Shown: in pieces, positions 25,841 through 34,258 of the stretch | Layout of the letters: each line of letters starts with the position of its first letter | How positions within the stretch are numbered: position 1 is the first letter of the stretch | From: Peptococcaceae bacterium 1109 | Lineage (GTDB): Bacteria > Bacillota > Limnochordia > Darwinibacteriales > Darwinibacteriaceae | Reading direction: 5' to 3' | NCBI GenBank assembly: GCA_001028815.1 | Contig: LDJB01000002.1 | Coordinates: forward strand, 372,001 to 436,000 | DNA length: 64,000 nucleotides | Translations under genes and position numbers: made by a program | The notes under the pieces: model-generated | The model's database searches: none | What the model saw: the letters and a program-made list of their open reading frames with translations, nothing else | Told to the model about the DNA's origin: nothing

Positions 25841-26269
25841 GTGAATAAACTGAGAACCATCTTGTTGGTCTGCTTAGTCAGTGTACTAGCTGTTGGGGCC
25901 GTTGTCAATGCGGAGATTAAGGGGTACCCAGTGGATATACCTGGTACGAACGTGAACTTCTTCCTGTATAGGTACACAGGCGATGAGGTCCCATATGATG
26001 CTATTGGCCAGATTTGGAAGAACCTGAGCGACGTTTTGGTTCAGTGGTCTTCCGAGGGGGCGAATCCATCTGCTCTTTCCCCCGCAGATGTGGAAGTCAA
26101 AATAGTAGGAGATGTGGTTGGGGTATACCTCAAAGGCCAGCTGATTGTTGAGGTCGATGAGTTCCACGCCACGGCAAATCATGCTACTCGGGTTCAGCTT
26201 GCCACCATGTGGGCAGAGAACCTCAAGAAAGGCGTGGAAGTCTTCGTCGAACTGAACCAACCTCGGTAG
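25841..26269 (+). CDS. Secreted protein of unknown function, 142 residues
   Basis: The frame begins with GTG, 7 nt after GGGGAGG, and encodes a signal peptide (about 1-24, ending near VVNA) and a compact ~118-residue mature domain without cysteines. The mature part is acidic, with a beta region (VKIVGDVVGVYLKGQLIVEVD) and a helical C-terminus. I do not recognise the family. It is a single-gene unit, ended by a clear terminator, and lies just outside the tRNA cluster promoter on the opposite strand. Confidence 0.75.
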   Translation: MNKLRTILLVCLVSVLAVGAVVNAEIKGYPVDIPGTNVNFFLYRYTGDEVPYDAIGQIWKNLSDVLVQWSSEGANPSALSPADVEVKIVGDVVGVYLKGQLIVEVDEFHATANHATRVQLATMWAENLKKGVEVFVELNQPR

Positions 26270-26409: not shown

Positions 26410-27051
26410 ATGGCATCGACCGTGACGGAAACCATCCAGTCTGTTCAATATGTGAAGAACTGCCATGTGGTGGAAGAAAACGGCCAGATCGCCCAGGTTT
26501 TTGTAGAGGCCGAACTGCCTGAGGGGGACGAAGACGAGCGAACCCGAACCATCAAGAGTGTGGTCCGCTCCATTATCGGCGCGGTAGCCTTAAACCACGA
26601 CCTACAGCTAGACTATAGGAAAATCAAAGTGGTAGAGTATAAACCTGCTGAAGAATCCGGGCTGGTGATCCACCCCAGGATCCAGATCGGTGCTGCGTTT
26701 TTGAGGCGATTCCCCCGGCGAGAGACGGTCGTAGAGCTGCATGTGCTGGGACGCACCGCAGTGGGCACCTGGCCAAGCACAGACAACCCTGCCCAAGATG
26801 CATATTACGCTTGCGTGAACGCCTTAGCAGGGCTGGGCTACACTGGTTTTGAGCTCGTCTATCTTGAGATTCTCCACAACGACTTTGCCAATGAGAAGAT
26901 TGTCTTACTTAAGGTAAAATACGCCACTGTGCCAGGCGGAGAAGAAACGCTGTTGGGTGTAGCCGAGATTCAGGAAGACCTTCCCTTAGCGGTGGTCAAG
27001 GCTGTGCTCAACGCCATCAATCGCAGAATAGGTTTGCCTACCCGAACCTAA
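26410..27051 (+). CDS. Cytosolic protein of unknown function, LeuA-dimer-like C-terminus
   Basis: The 213-residue soluble protein starts after GGGGGAGGGGG. The N-terminal ~75 residues form an alpha/beta unit with the pattern RTIKSVVRSIIG...DYRKIKVVEY. The C-terminal ~120 residues suggest a beta-beta-beta-alpha repeat with small-residue-rich helices (DAYYACVNALAGLG and LPLAVVKAVLNAINR), reminiscent of the regulatory domain of isopropylmalate synthase. This likeness is from memory of the pattern and is weak. It is followed by the tiny peptide gene and the HD-GYP gene on the same strand. Confidence 0.7.
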   Translation: MASTVTETIQSVQYVKNCHVVEENGQIAQVFVEAELPEGDEDERTRTIKSVVRSIIGAVALNHDLQLDYRKIKVVEYKPAEESGLVIHPRIQIGAAFLRRFPRRETVVELHVLGRTAVGTWPSTDNPAQDAYYACVNALAGLGYTGFELVYLEILHNDFANEKIVLLKVKYATVPGGEETLLGVAEIQEDLPLAVVKAVLNAINRRIGLPTRT

Positions 27052-27072
27052 CCGAACGCAACCTAACCGAAC
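27045..27072 (+). repeat. Tandem 13-bp direct repeat at a gene end
   Basis: AACCTAACCGAAC occurs at 27045-27057 and 27060-27072, a 15-bp period. The first copy contains the stop codon of the preceding gene; the second would supply another in-frame TAA. Confidence 0.85.
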
Positions 27073-27110
27073 CCATGCAATCAGCAATTCAGCCTGGGGG
27101 AGGTTTGAAA

Positions 27111-27200
27111 ATGAAGAAGCTTATCGCTTTCCTGTTGACAGCAGCCGCGTTCTTGACAGCTGCTGCCAGCGTACTGGCAGACACAGTAAGAGTTAAGTAG
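27111..27200 (+). CDS. 29-residue exported peptide precursor
   Basis: A 30-codon frame starts at ATG 27111, 6 nt after GGGGGAGGT, and stops at TAG 27198. The product is almost entirely a signal peptide: MKK, a 20-residue hydrophobic Ala/Leu core, then SVLA. Predicted cleavage after SVLA would leave only the hexapeptide DTVRVK. Such a layout is seen in precursors of exported signalling peptides (Phr class), but it could also be a remnant of a longer secreted gene. The HD-GYP membrane protein starts 52 nt downstream. Not long enough to be picked up by ordinary gene calling. Confidence 0.6.
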   Translation: MKKLIAFLLTAAAFLTAAASVLADTVRVK

Positions 27201-27252
27201 TTCTTCATCTCCTTAACGGGTAGGCATTCCTTTCTTGTTGGAGGTCTCGTCA

Positions 27253-28518
27253 ATGCGCCAGAAGCTGTTCAAACCCTATCTTGTCGGCTGCGCCCTGGCC
27301 GCCGTTGTGTTTCTCGTTGCGGCCTTTGCCTACCAGGGATTCACGTTTGACCCCCGACTGATTGTGTTTCTTATCTTACTGCTACTCAACGCCCACTACC
27401 AGATTTTCAGCGTTGATGGAAGCCGCAGCTTTGCCATCACCTTTCCCATTTTGTTCCCCGTAGTAGCTCTTTTTGGGCCAGCTTGGGCCTGTGCCCTTGG
27501 CTTTCTAGGCACCGTATCCCTCGACGAGCTCGACCGGGATAAGCTTGTTCTGGCCTATAACCAGGGAGCCATCGGCCTATCAGCGGGCTTGAGCGCACTT
27601 GCCTTCCAAGCCACCGGCGGTATTCCCGCTTTAGTGGTGTCACTGCCCGTCGCCGTCTTAACGTATTCACTGCTTAATCACGGCTTGGCCATGCTCGTTT
27701 TTTACCTGCGGGCCGATCAGCCTGCGCTTAAGTGGACATTCATCCTTAACGTCTTCAAGACCCTCATACCTTCTGTGGCTTTATCTGCCTTTTTCTATTT
27801 TTGCTTTTACCACTACGATATTCTCGGCCTATTTGGGGCATACTTCCTTTTTGTGGTAGTTAGGTCAGGGGCGCTCTTAGGGCACTTAGAAACCAACTAC
27901 CGCATTGCCCTCATCCGTTCGTTAATGAGAGCAGTCCACGCGAAGGATCCTTCCCTTATGGCTCACCTGGAAAATGTGGCAGATTACTCAAAACGGTTGG
28001 CCAAAGCATGCCGCTATCCCTTCTGGAAAATGCCCATCTTGATTGAGGCCGCCTATTTCCACGACATCGGGAAGCTGGAAATCAACGACTCGATTTTGAA
28101 GAAATCGGGCAGGCTGACCCCAGAAGAGTACAGCAGGATGCAGACCCACCCAACCCGGGGTGTTGAGTTCTTGAAGGAAGTACCCCTGCCTCCAGCCCAT
28201 AAGCCCATTGTGGAAAATATTGCTGGATACCACCACGAGCGCTACGACGGAACGGGGTATCCTCGCGGGCTCAAGGGGGAAGAAATACCCCTAGAGGCCA
28301 GGATCGTGGCTGTTGCTGATACGTGGGATGCCATGGTGGGTGAGCGCTGTTACCGCAAGCCCATGCCTATCCCCGATGCCATTGCAGAACTGCGGCATGT
28401 CAAGGGGACCCAGCTCGATCCTGTGTTAGTTGAGCTGTTCATTGAGCTTATCGAGAACGACAACCGCAGTGTACACGCGGTCCGGAGTGTCACCCATAGG
28501 CCCATGCACGTCCTGTAA
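27253..28518 (+). CDS. Membrane HD-GYP phosphodiesterase
   Basis: The N-terminal ~210 residues form about eight membrane helices, a sensory region resembling the membrane domains of other signalling proteins. The C-terminal HD-GYP domain, which degrades cyclic di-GMP or related dinucleotides, has the catalytic pair H270-D271 (in YFHDIGKLE), HHERYDGTGYP with the GYP triad at 335-337, and VADTWDAM. All catalytic residues seem intact. ATG at 27253 has GGAGG 8 nt upstream; a TTG at 27235 is less likely. The RibD-C gene follows 12 nt later. Confidence 0.92.
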   Translation: MRQKLFKPYLVGCALAAVVFLVAAFAYQGFTFDPRLIVFLILLLLNAHYQIFSVDGSRSFAITFPILFPVVALFGPAWACALGFLGTVSLDELDRDKLVLAYNQGAIGLSAGLSALAFQATGGIPALVVSLPVAVLTYSLLNHGLAMLVFYLRADQPALKWTFILNVFKTLIPSVALSAFFYFCFYHYDILGLFGAYFLFVVVRSGALLGHLETNYRIALIRSLMRAVHAKDPSLMAHLENVADYSKRLAKACRYPFWKMPILIEAAYFHDIGKLEINDSILKKSGRLTPEEYSRMQTHPTRGVEFLKEVPLPPAHKPIVENIAGYHHERYDGTGYPRGLKGEEIPLEARIVAVADTWDAMVGERCYRKPMPIPDAIAELRHVKGTQLDPVLVELFIELIENDNRSVHAVRSVTHRPMHVL

Positions 28519-30663: not shown

Positions 30664-31530
30664 TCAGCCTACATTCTTCATCCGCGGGTCAAGAGCATCT
30701 CGTAAGCCGTCCCCCACCAAGTTAAGGCAAAGCACAGTGGTGAAAATGGCCAAACCTGGTATGGTAACAGCCCAATGGGAAACCCGGATAAAGGGCCGGG
30801 CCGCAGAGATCATGCTGCCCCATTCCGGCGTAGGCGGCTGCGCGCCCATCCCCAAGAAACTCAAGCCTGCAGCAGACAAAATAGCGCCTGCCAGAGACAG
30901 AGTTGCCATAACTATAATGGGGTTCAGGGAGTTGGGCAGAATGTGCCGGAAAATCATCCGTGCATCCGATGATCCAATGGCTTCTGCAGCGCTCACATAA
31001 TCCAGTTCCCGAATGGTCAAAACAGACGAACGCATCAAGCGAGCGAACGATGGGATATACGAAATGCCGATGGCGATGATCACATTATCCAAGCCGGGGC
31101 CTAAGGCCGCCACAATAGCCAAGGCCAAGAGAAAGCCAGGGAGAGCCATGAGAATATCCACAAACCGCATGATGATGTTATCTAACAGGCCGCCGTAAAA
31201 GCCCGCAACAAGCCCCAGCAAGCATCCTACAACAATGGCGATCAAAATGGACGAAAAGCCAACCCGAAGAGAAAGGCGGGCGCCGTACACGACGCGCGTG
31301 TAAGTGTCCCGGCCAAATTGATCCGTGCCAAAAATATGCTCTCGGCTTGGGCCCTGGAGGCGGTTGCGGATGTTCTGCTTAACCGGGTCATAAGGGGTTA
31401 CATAGGGGGCGAAGATCGCGAGGAATATGATGACAAAAAGGACGATGCCGCCTACGACCGCCCGGCGGTTTTTCAACAGCTGGCGCATGATGCGCTTGGT
31501 TTCGCTCTGGCGAATAGTGGTTTCTTCCAC
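30664..31530 (-). CDS. Peptide/nickel ABC transporter permease, DppC type
   Basis: The second permease of a Dpp/Opp-class importer: 288 residues, an N-terminal cytoplasmic segment, about six helices and the ATPase-contact loop EAIGSSDARMIFRHILPN. The family N-terminal domain motif FGTDQFGRDTYTRVVYGAR is complete. GTG start with AAGGAGGGG upstream. It ends at a strong terminator, so the operon has no ATPase genes; those subunits must be supplied from elsewhere. Confidence 0.94.
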   Translation of the reverse strand: MEETTIRQSETKRIMRQLLKNRRAVVGGIVLFVIIFLAIFAPYVTPYDPVKQNIRNRLQGPSREHIFGTDQFGRDTYTRVVYGARLSLRVGFSSILIAIVVGCLLGLVAGFYGGLLDNIIMRFVDILMALPGFLLALAIVAALGPGLDNVIIAIGISYIPSFARLMRSSVLTIRELDYVSAAEAIGSSDARMIFRHILPNSLNPIIVMATLSLAGAILSAAGLSFLGMGAQPPTPEWGSMISAARPFIRVSHWAVTIPGLAIFTTVLCLNLVGDGLRDALDPRMKNVG

Positions 31531-31545
31531 GATAACCCCTCCTTC

Positions 31546-32475
31546 CTAGTTGTAGCGTGCCCGCAGCCGGGGATCTAAGAACGCATACAACACATCAACG
31601 ATTAAGTTTATCAAAGCGTACATGATGGCAAAGGTCATGATGGTCCCCTGGACCACTGGAAAGTCCTTGTTGTTAATGGCTTCCACCACCAGCCGGCCAA
31701 TTCCCGGCCACGCGAAAATGGTCTCTGTAAGGACCGCACCGGCCATCAAGCCGCCAAACTGCAAGCCGATCATGGTAACCACAGGAATAAGTGCATTACG
31801 CAGGGCGTGCACAAAAACCACCTTGAACCGGGCCAAGCCCTTGGCGGTGGCTGTGCGGATGAAATCCTGCTGAAGCACTTCCAGCATAGATGAACGGGTC
31901 ATCCGCGCGATGCTGGCCATGGACCGGGTCCCTAGGGTCAGAGCGGGAAGAATGTAGTACTCTAACCCGCCCATGCGGCCCGATGATGGGAACCAACCCA
32001 ACCAGACGGAAAAGATCAGAATAAACATAATGCCCTGCCAAAAGGCAGGCATGCCAACCCCCGCAAGTGCCCCCAGCATTGCCACATTATCCAACAAAGA
32101 ATTGGGCTTGCTTGCTGAAAGAATCCCCACTGGAATCCCCACAATCACAGAGATGGCCACGGCCAAAACGGCCAGTTCCGCCGTTGCCGGCAAGCGCTCC
32201 ATGATTTCCGCGGTGACCACTTTCTTCGACCGGAGTGAACGGCCAAAATCTAAGCGAACGGCTTTCTTCAGCCAGTTAAAGTACTGCACAGGGAGCGGGT
32301 CATTCAGGCCCAGTTCTTCCCGGAGTGCTTCCAACTGATCAGCAGGAGCTGATTCTCCCAACATTAAGCGGGCCGGGTCACCAGGGGTGAGGTGCATGAT
32401 TAAGAACACAAAAATAGAAATACCTATGAGTACCGGTATGACTAAGAGCAAACGCCTTATGATATATCCAGACAT
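31546..32475 (-). CDS. Peptide/nickel ABC transporter permease, DppB type
   Basis: The first permease, 309 residues with about six helices, starts YIIRRLLLVIPVLIGISIFVF as is usual for DppB. The contact loop TAKGLARFKVVFVHALRNA and the region TIFAWPGIGRLVVEAI are typical. It lies 15 nt upstream of the DppC gene and about 100 nt after the binding-protein gene, with a stable hairpin between. Confidence 0.94.
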   Translation of the reverse strand: MSGYIIRRLLLVIPVLIGISIFVFLIMHLTPGDPARLMLGESAPADQLEALREELGLNDPLPVQYFNWLKKAVRLDFGRSLRSKKVVTAEIMERLPATAELAVLAVAISVIVGIPVGILSASKPNSLLDNVAMLGALAGVGMPAFWQGIMFILIFSVWLGWFPSSGRMGGLEYYILPALTLGTRSMASIARMTRSSMLEVLQQDFIRTATAKGLARFKVVFVHALRNALIPVVTMIGLQFGGLMAGAVLTETIFAWPGIGRLVVEAINNKDFPVVQGTIMTFAIMYALINLIVDVLYAFLDPRLRARYN

Positions 32476-32511
32476 TTAAGTCCGCCATCCCCCTCGATGC
32501 CTGAACCCATT

Positions 32512-32540
32512 ATAGGCGGGGTTCAGTGAACCCCGCCTAT
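32512..32540 (-). terminator. Stable hairpin between binding-protein and permease genes
   Basis: ATAGGCGGGGTTC and GAACCCCGCCTAT form a perfect 13-bp stem with a 3-nt loop. No T run follows on the minus strand, so it is more likely to protect the upstream mRNA or attenuate transcription partially, allowing more binding protein than permease. Confidence 0.7.
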
Positions 32541-32573
32541 TTCAGGTCCGACAAACATTCTTGCTAAAACAGC

Positions 32574-34076
32574 TTACTTATTAACAGATACGCCACCGAG
32601 TACGTGATGTCCTGCTGGATGCGGCCAAAAACCTTCAACGTAGTCACGGAGGCCGTTAACAGCACTGGTGTTAATCAGGAATACCCATGGTGCATCCTCT
32701 ACGATGGTCTCTTGAGCTTCCCAGTAGATGGCCATGCGCTTCTCAGGATCGGTTTCCCGACGGCCAGCATCCAAGAGCTCATCTACCCGTGGGTTAGTGT
32801 AGAAGGTGCGGTTGCCTGGGTCGCCGTGCATGCTGCTGTGGAACAGCGCATAGAGGCCGTAGTCAGCATCAGCGGTGACAGTACCCCAGCCGAGGATGAA
32901 CATGTCATGCTTACCCAAAGCTGTGTCTTCCAGGTAGGTTGCCCAAGGCAGAATCTGAATTTCAACCTCCACACCAACGTCTGCGAGGTTGGCCTGGAAC
33001 ATTTCGGCAATCTGCATTCTCAGCGGGTTGTCGTTGGTCCAGATGGACAGCTTCAGGCCATCAGCATAACCGGCTTCGGCGAGGAGTTCACGAGCCTTGT
33101 CAGGATCGTAATAGTATCCCTCAACGTTAGGATTGAAGCCCCACGCTCCTGGAGGCAGCGGAGTGTTCGACTTGGCTGCAAGGCCGGTGTAGATGTAATC
33201 TACAACAGCATCCACGTCCAGAGCATAGTTGATGGCTTGCCGTACCAGTTTGTTGTCAAGGGGCGGCTTAAGGACGTTAAAGCCTACATAGCTGGTGGAC
33301 AGCTCTTCGTACTTATCCAAAACGATACCTGGCTGGCCGGTCAGACGCAGCTCATCCATGGGCTCCAGGTTGTAAGCGATATCCACACCACCGGTCTCAA
33401 GCTCGATAGCCCGGACGGTACCTTCTGGGATACTCCGGATGATGAGTTCTTCTACCTTAGCGGGCTCGCCCCAATAATTCTCGTTCCGCACCAAGGTAAC
33501 GTGGGAACCGGAAACCCATTCCTTGAAAACAAACGGGCCGGTGCCGATTGCTACGGAAGCGCCGAAGTCGTCCCCAGCTTCCTCCACAGAACGGCGGTTG
33601 ACAATGGCGGTGGAAGGGTGAGCGAGGTGGTTGAGGATTGGCGCATATGGGTTAGCCATGCGGATCCGTACTGTGTAATCATCCACGACCTCAACTTCGG
33701 AAATTGCCTCAAGCAAGAACGCTACGGTGGCGGAATCCTTCACACGCTCGATGCTGTACTTCACATCTTCGGCGGTAAAGGCGTCACCATTGTGGAACTT
33801 CACGCCTTGACGGAGTTTGAATTCCAGCTCGTTCGGGGTAATGAACTCCCAGCTTTCGGCAAGGGCAGGAACGATGTTCAGATCCTTATCGAACTCGACC
33901 AACGTTTCATAGATCTGCACCCGTACACGGGCGGATGGCTGGTCATTCTGGCCTTGGGGATCCAAGGTGACAGGATCTGCGCCTTGTGCCACGATTAGTG
34001 TCTGGGCAGCTGCCAGAGATACCATCGAGAACACAAGAGCAAAGACGGCTACAACTACCAACAGCGACTTTCTCAA
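32574..34076 (-). CDS. Peptide ABC transporter substrate-binding protein (family 5)
   Basis: The 500-residue exported binding protein captures peptides or other small molecules for the DppBC-like permeases. The family signature region is GVKFHNGDAFTAEDVKYSIERV, and RQAINYALDVDAVV is typical. The open frame begins at 34112, but its first residues translate the ribosome binding site (RRRR). TTG at 34076 lies 9 nt after AGGAGG and gives a clean signal peptide RKSLLVVVAVFALVFSMVSL ending near AAA. There is no lipobox cysteine, so the protein may be released or held otherwise. Confidence 0.94.
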   Translation of the reverse strand: MRKSLLVVVAVFALVFSMVSLAAAQTLIVAQGADPVTLDPQGQNDQPSARVRVQIYETLVEFDKDLNIVPALAESWEFITPNELEFKLRQGVKFHNGDAFTAEDVKYSIERVKDSATVAFLLEAISEVEVVDDYTVRIRMANPYAPILNHLAHPSTAIVNRRSVEEAGDDFGASVAIGTGPFVFKEWVSGSHVTLVRNENYWGEPAKVEELIIRSIPEGTVRAIELETGGVDIAYNLEPMDELRLTGQPGIVLDKYEELSTSYVGFNVLKPPLDNKLVRQAINYALDVDAVVDYIYTGLAAKSNTPLPPGAWGFNPNVEGYYYDPDKARELLAEAGYADGLKLSIWTNDNPLRMQIAEMFQANLADVGVEVEIQILPWATYLEDTALGKHDMFILGWGTVTADADYGLYALFHSSMHGDPGNRTFYTNPRVDELLDAGRRETDPEKRMAIYWEAQETIVEDAPWVFLINTSAVNGLRDYVEGFWPHPAGHHVLGGVSVNK

Positions 34077-34258
34077 TTCTCTTCTCCTCCTCAACGTTTT
34101 TTGAGCAAACAATCTGTCGCTCCAGCTTAGGGCTTTCGTAAGTATACGAGGCTCGCCTTCCGTTTTCCTTCATTTTCGGCTGAAAAATATTCGTTACTTT
34201 TATCCAAATATGGTTAACAGGTCCTTTGCAGGAGTTGGCCAGCTAAAGTCAAATAGAA

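What the first reader, a model, noticed from the sequence alone, without database searches (positions are those of the whole stretch)
27111..27200. 29-residue precursor that would release a hexapeptide, just before an HD-GYP gene
The frame has a strong GGGGGAGGT site with 6-nt spacing, but encodes only a signal peptide plus DTVRVK. A gene made of little more than a signal peptide is the layout of Phr-class pheromone precursors. It lies 52 nt before an eight-helix membrane HD-GYP phosphodiesterase and in its direction. If a receptor senses the peptide, secreted peptide could tune cyclic dinucleotide levels. This link is speculative, and a remnant of a longer secreted gene is the main alternative.
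Basis: partly seen in the sequence, partly recalled or inferred. Interest (0 to 1): 0.75.

Follow-up and report, generated by a model that had tools for sequence, protein, structure and literature searches.

The report
Hidden micropeptide-RNA module beside HD-GYP gene
A 29-codon gene that looks like a bare signal peptide turns out to belong to an undescribed family of 19-33 residue peptides, each wrapped in its own folded RNA and sitting directly upstream of the same membrane-bound cyclic-di-GMP-degrading enzyme across the phylum Bacillota, which suggests a dedicated peptide or leader-peptide control of that enzyme.

Summary
The 29-codon frame is real: strong ribosome-binding site, signal-peptide shape, tail DTVRVK, HD-GYP gene 52 nt downstream. 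It is a conserved gene, not a remnant. Orthologs lie upstream of the orthologous HD-GYP gene in 20 further genomes of its class (one frameshifted); unsaturated pairs mostly give dN/dS <0.3. Beyond the class I found about 80 relatives, about 50 family-level groups of Bacillota in all. All are 19-33 codons, between or beside a LeuA-regulatory-domain-like gene and a membrane HD-GYP gene. Most have N-terminal K/R, a hydrophobic core and an 'LA' cleavage-like site, then a 6-9 residue basic/aromatic tail, (GG|DT)A-x-[FYW]-[KR]-W. The sORF is missing from 11 syntenic loci that lack the HD-GYP gene. It sits inside an RNA element whose closing stem pairs across it in 87 of 99 loci (10 of 99 in a mismatched control), with 76 different 3' arms. 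Pfam, NCBIfam and Rfam have no such peptide, LeuA-like family or RNA. Preferred reading: an exported or membrane-held micropeptide that acts on the co-encoded HD-GYP phosphodiesterase. Main rival: a cis-acting leader or arrest peptide. The pheromone idea is plausible but unproven, and it is not a Phr/RRNPP member.

The parts
26410..27051 (+). LeuA-regulatory-domain-like protein, 213 aa; conserved neighbour, usually upstream, sometimes downstream of the HD-GYP gene
   Evidence: No Pfam/NCBIfam/PDB-sequence hit; AlphaFold pLDDT 92.5; Foldseek best hits are LeuA (3fig, 3hpz, 1sr9) and citramalate synthase regulatory domains (3f6g/h); found in 158 of 398 Bacillota genomes
27034..27044 (+). 5' arm of closing stem P1 (TTGCCTACCCG); overlaps the last codons of the LeuA-like gene
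   Evidence: 9 pairs kept in all 21 class loci, 3 of them by changes on both sides; 87/99 loci phylum-wide
27045..27074 (+). Tandem 5-nt repeats AACCK (AACCT AACCG AACGC AACCT AACCG AACCC); other groups have AGCGR repeats
   Evidence: leader model R1 finds only these loci at E<=2.5e-15 in 73 class genomes
27071..27099 (+). Hairpin that can pair ACCC with the G-run of the ribosome-binding site
   Evidence: 98% of cells paired; mostly invariant, so only weak support from covariation
27096..27104 (+). Ribosome-binding site GGGGGAGGT
   Evidence: G-rich site conserved in relatives
27111..27200 (+). 29-codon micropeptide gene; residues 1-23 signal-sequence-like, residues 24-29 tail DTVRVK
27180..27197 (+). 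Codons of the tail DTVRVK after the VLA cleavage-like site; consensus (GG|DT)A-x-aromatic-basic-W
   Evidence: cleavage inferred from sequence, not shown
27217..27226 (+). 3' arm of P1 (CGGGTAGGCA), 16 nt after the stop codon
27227..27235 (+). Pyrimidine/T-rich run after P1; terminator-like in many relatives
   Evidence: T-run of at least 4 at the end of the arm in 51 of 99 loci, mean longest run 3.8 vs 2.1 in shuffles
27253..28518 (+). Membrane HD-GYP protein, 421 aa; N-terminal multi-helix sensor-like domain plus complete HD-GYP phosphodiesterase domain
   Evidence: Pfam HD_5; HD, HHE and GYP residues invariant in 50 orthologs; Foldseek HD-GYP 4mcw E=1e-10, N-terminal part weakly like ECF S-components (RibU, FolT); MASE9 hit in relative L203

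Best explanation
The frame is one member of a Bacillota-wide micropeptide family encoded inside a structured RNA element. Most likely the peptide acts in trans on the HD-GYP protein encoded next to it. Its signal-sequence-like N-terminus takes it to or through the membrane, and its 6-9 residue basic/aromatic tail, either released as a small peptide or displayed while still anchored, is a ligand or regulatory subunit of the N-terminal membrane sensor domain, which sets cyclic-di-GMP hydrolysis. Stem P1 closes the RNA around the sORF and often ends in a U-run, so transcription would make a compact peptide mRNA in excess and only partly read into the HD-GYP gene. Shown: conservation, purifying selection, joint gain or loss with the HD-GYP gene, and a paired P1. 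Inferred: translation, export, cleavage, binding to the HD-GYP protein, and P1 as partial terminator.
For: The amino-acid sequence is selected: dN/dS is mostly <0.3 in the class. Conservation is stronger when peptides are aligned on the LA/GG cleavage-like site than on the stop codon, and the distance from tail motif to stop varies. The tail pattern is shared by the GGA and ADT subtypes, e.g. GGASFRWG and DTARFRWPR. The sORF follows the HD-GYP gene, not the LeuA-like gene: it is present in every LeuA-like/HD-GYP pair examined, also where the LeuA-like gene lies downstream (L118, L119, L172-L174), and absent from 11 syntenic loci where the LeuA-like gene is followed directly by secA. P1 is real: 87/99 versus 10/99 control, 76 distinct arms. 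The P1 arms lie outside the sORF, with the 3' arm a median 14 nt after the stop, so P1 can form while the sORF is translated. The HD-GYP catalytic motif is intact and this genome has 13 GGDEF domains.
Against: No expression, secretion or binding data. In one family-level group (f33: L182, L185, L212-L214) the peptide is 19-20 aa, with a short and in several cases arginine-interrupted hydrophobic stretch that is a poor signal sequence, although the aromatic tail is kept. A conserved RNA leader and a stem starting just after the stop codon are also the layout of cis-acting leader peptides. The arrest peptide CliM has a C-terminal KYxIW motif (PMC13183943), which resembles some tails here (e.g. 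SNYIW*). No signal-peptide predictor was available.
Confidence: 0.5

Rival explanations
1. Cis-acting leader or arrest peptide. Translation of the sORF, perhaps stalling at its aromatic/basic end near the stop codon, decides whether P1 and the following U-run stop transcription or hide the start of the HD-GYP gene; the peptide itself has no further role.
For: P1 brackets the sORF in 87/99 loci, its 3' arm starts a median 14 nt after the stop, and a T-run of 4 or more follows or ends it in 51/99. The leader has a conserved hairpin with a UAGCGG loop (47 distinct stems in 54 loci) and G-rich ribosome-binding site. W is the last or second-last residue in 41/64 GGA-type peptides. CliM shows that a short W-containing C-terminal motif can arrest translation in Clostridia (PMC13183943). 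f33 peptides keep the tail but not a good signal sequence.
Against: Both P1 arms lie outside a ribosome standing at the stop codon, and no alternative partner for the 3' arm is found (15.7 vs 14.8 in shuffles). The motif-to-stop distance varies by several residues, and the residues next to the stop differ between subtypes. The signal-sequence-like organisation would be unexplained. At 19-33 residues the chain is too short for its N-terminus to leave the ribosome before the stop, so a SecM/MifM-type secretion monitor is unlikely (general knowledge of tunnel length).
Confidence: 0.32
2. Ordinary small single-span membrane protein: a structural or stabilising subunit of the HD-GYP protein with no signalling role.
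For: Length, N-terminal basic residues, hydrophobic core, and strict pairing with one membrane protein.
Against: The hydrophobic stretch of about 12-15 residues followed by AGGA or LADT looks like a signal-sequence c-region rather than a full span; f33 members have no credible span.
Confidence: 0.12
3. The conserved object is an RNA regulator only, and the open frame is incidental or decaying, as in a remnant of a longer secreted gene.
For: The RNA leader and P1 are strongly conserved; one class member (L051) is frameshifted.
Against: dN/dS well below 1; frame and 19-33 codon length kept across about 50 family-level groups; no longer homolog with the same tail found; L051 is a homopolymer difference in a draft metagenome assembly.
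Confidence: 0.03

Closest known systems
RRNPP propeptides (Phr, PapR, NprX, SHP, PrgQ)
   Same: Short gene with basic N-terminus, hydrophobic stretch and a C-terminal 4-10 residue functional peptide; validated propeptides are 21-50 aa (PMC10075063)
   Different: No adjacent TPR receptor; the partners are a membrane HD-GYP protein and a LeuA-like protein; tail conserved across a phylum; enclosed in a structured RNA
Enterococcal inhibitor peptides iCF10 and Ipd and lipoprotein signal-peptide pheromones
   Same: Gene or active peptide that is little more than a signal peptide, mature peptide 7-8 residues (PMC7117660); NCBIfam Ipd model gives a sub-threshold E=0.035 to a class relative
   Different: Tails are basic/aromatic, not purely hydrophobic; chromosomal, next to HD-GYP, no PrgX-type regulator
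[quoted passage not shown]
   Same: Small ORF upstream of a membrane-related gene with RNA structure after the ORF; in many Bacillota this locus lies between hpf and secA
   Different: Much shorter (19-33 vs about 78 residues for CliM); no RAPP motif; paired with HD-GYP, and lost together with it although secA stays
MASE9-type membrane HD-GYP phosphodiesterases
   Same: Relative L203 hits Pfam MASE9 and HD_5; complete catalytic motif
   Different: The window protein itself gives no MASE9 hit; a constant micropeptide/RNA partner has not been described in what I could search
Structured RNAs of Rfam 15
   Same: cis element with conserved loops and covarying stems upstream of a c-di-GMP gene
   Different: No family matches the element in the window or in nine relative loci

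Membership tests
RRNPP/Phr quorum-sensing propeptides | Propeptide of 10-100 aa | tested here: met
   29 aa; relatives 19-33 aa
RRNPP/Phr quorum-sensing propeptides | Adjacent 250-500 aa receptor with tetratricopeptide repeats | tested here: not met
   Neighbours are HD-GYP (HD_5/HD only) and a LeuA-like protein without Pfam hit
RRNPP/Phr quorum-sensing propeptides | Sec- or PptAB-dependent export and maturation to a short peptide | not testable with these tools
   Only sequence features: K/R n-region, hydrophobic core, VLA/D site; no predictor available
Enterococcal Ipd/PrgQ inhibitor peptides | Match to the curated Ipd family model | tested here: not met
   NF033893 14.3 bits against a cut-off of 33; window peptide no hit
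Sec/YidC-monitoring arrest peptides | RAPP-like arrest motif or known arrest sequence | tested here: not met
   No RAPP/RGPP in any of the 99 peptides; resemblance to CliM KYxIW is by eye only
Sec/YidC-monitoring arrest peptides | Ribosome stalling that controls the downstream gene | not testable with these tools
   Needs toeprinting or ribosome profiling
HD-GYP cyclic-di-GMP phosphodiesterase | HD, HHE and GYP catalytic motifs | tested here: met
   Invariant in 50 orthologs; Foldseek 4mcw E=1.2e-10
MASE9 sensor domain | Match to Pfam PF20972 | tested here: inconclusive
   L203 relative E=2.4e-8; window protein no hit
LeuA/CMS regulatory domain | Fold of the leucine/isoleucine-binding regulatory domain | tested here: met
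   AlphaFold model matches 3fig, 3hpz, 3f6h at E 1e-5 to 1e-4; no sequence-profile hit
Known Rfam regulatory RNA | Match to any covariance model | tested here: not met
TRAP-regulated leader | Tandem (G/U)AG triplets spaced by 2-3 nt | tested here: not met
   Genome has TRAP and the repeats have 5-nt period, but the unit is AACCK, not KAGNN

The most novel reading that the evidence does not exclude
A previously undescribed, phylum-wide signalling module in which a dedicated secreted or membrane-displayed micropeptide, translated from inside its own structured RNA, is the direct ligand of a membrane HD-GYP phosphodiesterase, so that a gene-encoded peptide sets cyclic-di-GMP; the LeuA-like protein would be an amino-acid- or RNA-binding third component.
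Probability: 0.3. Interest if true: 0.93.

Novelty: new variant of a known kind. Interest (0 to 1): 0.82.

Why it matters
The signals that membrane HD-GYP phosphodiesterases respond to are largely unknown. Here a whole phylum keeps a tiny gene, an RNA element and an HD-GYP gene together, and the peptide and enzyme are gained or lost as a unit. That makes 'what does this HD-GYP sense?' directly testable with a synthetic 6-9 residue peptide or a frameshift of 29 codons. It also adds an RNA family whose long-range closing stem encloses a reading frame, and a peptide family of a size that annotation pipelines tend to skip.

Tried and rejected
TRAP binding to the 5-nt repeats: the genome has TRAP but the triplets are wrong. 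Known riboswitch or RNA family: none. Other genes with the same leader: weak R1 hits in G033, G024, G027, G029 and elsewhere in G000 were inspected and are noise. Second copies of the peptide in the own genome: none. DNA-looping operator instead of RNA stem: arm-to-arm spacing varies freely without helical phasing and arms differ completely between groups while staying complementary. Antiterminator partner for the 3' arm: no excess. RNAalifold on the GGA-type leader alignment found nothing because MAFFT misaligned the variable stem; anchoring on the UAGCGG loop showed the covarying hairpin. Pairwise dN/dS for GGA-type peptides is mostly saturated. My first pass thought several relatives lacked the sORF; those loci were on the other strand (corrected).

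Full report
Observation. The window lies in a 2.7-Mb draft genome. Relatives found with the HD-GYP protein in a named collection are labelled Limnochordia, Clostridiales or Bacillota metagenome-assembled genomes. The genome has one copy of the peptide, 13 GGDEF domains and TRAP.

Conservation within the class. A profile of the peptide finds it in 21 of 73 genomes of the class counting the window's own, spread over six family-level groups and always upstream of the orthologous HD-GYP gene. Three genomes with the HD-GYP ortholog but no visible peptide (G001, G007, G030) have it at a contig edge, so the region is missing, not changed. Examples: MKRIMALLLAAAAFLAAAGSVLADTVKMR, MYKKLLAFLTFAMMYLAMTSTVLADTIKLKG, MKKRVMAILFAIAVTLGHAMVALADTARFRMR. 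L, LA, D and T around the cleavage-like site are invariant. In the unsaturated pairs of lowest dS, dN/dS is 0.00-0.29; across all 190 pairs no pair has pN >= pS. One relative (L051) carries a frameshift in an A/T homopolymer of a draft assembly. The frame is therefore a gene, not a relic.

Beyond the class. A phylum search with the peptide profile returned short frames with the same layout in distant genomes. A profile of the LeuA-like neighbour found that protein in 158 of 398 Bacillota genomes. Fetching about 100 of these loci showed a locus of three: LeuA-like gene, a 19-33 codon sORF, and a membrane HD-GYP gene. I analysed 99 sORFs from about 50 family-level groups (my count over the genome handles). 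Most are a GGA type (MSKVLKVLVALVSLVLAGGAHVKW, MARLLTILTAIATMILAGGASFRWG), a third an ADT/AES type like the window's. Both share one tail pattern, (GG|DT)A-x-aromatic-basic-W, 6-9 residues after an LA site (GGASFRWG beside DTARFRWPR). Apart from the D or E of the ADT-type motif, acidic residues are rare, and K or R occurs in the last five residues of 81 of 97. Conservation is higher when sequences are anchored on the cleavage-like site than on the stop codon.

A natural control. In 11 loci the LeuA-like gene is followed directly by secA (SecA identified by Pfam in L185, L203 and L204, and by eye in the 11) with no HD-GYP gene, and there is no sORF there. Other LeuA-like loci with unrelated neighbours also lack it. 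Conversely every LeuA-like/HD-GYP pair examined has one, including those in which the LeuA-like gene lies downstream of the HD-GYP gene (L118, L119, L172-L174). The sORF thus goes with the HD-GYP gene. Some sORFs (L182, L185, L214) were recognised by eye because the hydrophobicity filter missed them.

The RNA. The sORF is enclosed by an inverted repeat, here TGCCTACCCG 27035-27044 and CGGGTAGGCA 27217-27226. In the class, nine pairs are kept in all 21 sequences, three of them by changes on both sides; this is one clade-level change, so alone it is modest evidence. Across the phylum it becomes strong: a stem scoring 24 or more pairs the region upstream of the sORF with the region after its stop in 87 of 99 loci, against 10 of 99 when upstream and downstream parts of different loci are combined, and with 76 different 3' arm sequences. 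The 3' arm starts a median 14 nt after the stop (10-90%: 6-24), and a T-run of at least 4 lies at its end in 51 of 99. Between the 5' arm and the start codon are 5-nt repeats (AACCK here, AGCGR in GGA-type loci), in GGA-type loci a hairpin with a conserved UAGCGG loop and 47 different stems in 54 loci, and a G-rich ribosome-binding site. A covariance model of the class leader finds only these loci in 73 genomes (weaker hits checked). The window's 206-nt RNA folds at z = -3.65. Rfam has no match.

The partners. The HD-GYP model (pLDDT 91.6) has an intact HD-GYP domain (4mcw; motifs invariant) behind about six membrane helices that weakly resemble ECF transporter S-components (TmRibU TMt 0.56, Foldseek E 0.1; a lead only) and, in relative L203, hit Pfam MASE9.

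Mechanism. Two facts must be explained together: the amino-acid sequence is selected and organised like a signal peptide plus short tail, and the sORF sits inside a closed RNA. I prefer a trans-acting micropeptide for the co-encoded HD-GYP protein, with P1 acting as the closing stem of a peptide mRNA and partial terminator, because both P1 arms lie outside a ribosome at the stop codon, no alternative partner for the 3' arm exists, and the motif-to-stop distance varies. The main rival is an arrest or leader peptide acting in cis. The CliM paper shows a W-containing C-terminal motif arresting translation in Clostridia (PMC13183943), and group f33 keeps the tail while its hydrophobic stretch is short. 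I give 0.5 and 0.32. Whether the tail is released (pheromone) or stays anchored (subunit) cannot be told here.

Relation to known systems. It works somewhat like RRNPP propeptides (features listed in PMC10075063) or enterococcal inhibitor peptides (PMC7117660), but is not a member: there is no TPR receptor and no family-model match. [quoted passage not shown] Literature searches found no description of this locus, in an open-access library only.

Limits.

Noticed in passing
25841-26269: A 142-aa GTG-started secreted-looking protein (MNKLRTILLVCLVSVLAVGAVVNAEIKG...) just upstream of the LeuA-like gene, with no Pfam or NCBIfam match.
   Followed up: partly
30664-34112 (minus strand): An oligopeptide/dipeptide-type ABC transporter (two permeases and a binding protein, by eye) about 2 kb downstream of the HD-GYP gene; a possible peptide importer, conservation with the locus not tested.
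   Followed up: no
G000:C1:770124-770318 (L110): The genome encodes TRAP (Pfam TrpBP, E=2.4e-37).
   Followed up: partly
L182, L185, L212, L213, L214: One family-level group (f33) has 19-20 residue versions of the peptide with a short, in some cases arginine-interrupted hydrophobic stretch but the aromatic tail kept, and G-run/C-run P1 arms.
   Followed up: partly
L185, L203, L204 and 11 syntenic loci: In many Bacillota the LeuA-like gene sits between hpf and secA, with or without the inserted sORF/HD-GYP pair, sometimes with a DUF5317 gene before secA.
   Followed up: partly
L184:4830-4916: A c-di-GMP-I riboswitch lies on the opposite strand about 1.2 kb from the LeuA-like gene of this relative.
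   Followed up: no
L191, L192, L201: A second membrane HD-GYP gene follows directly after the first in these relatives.
   Followed up: no
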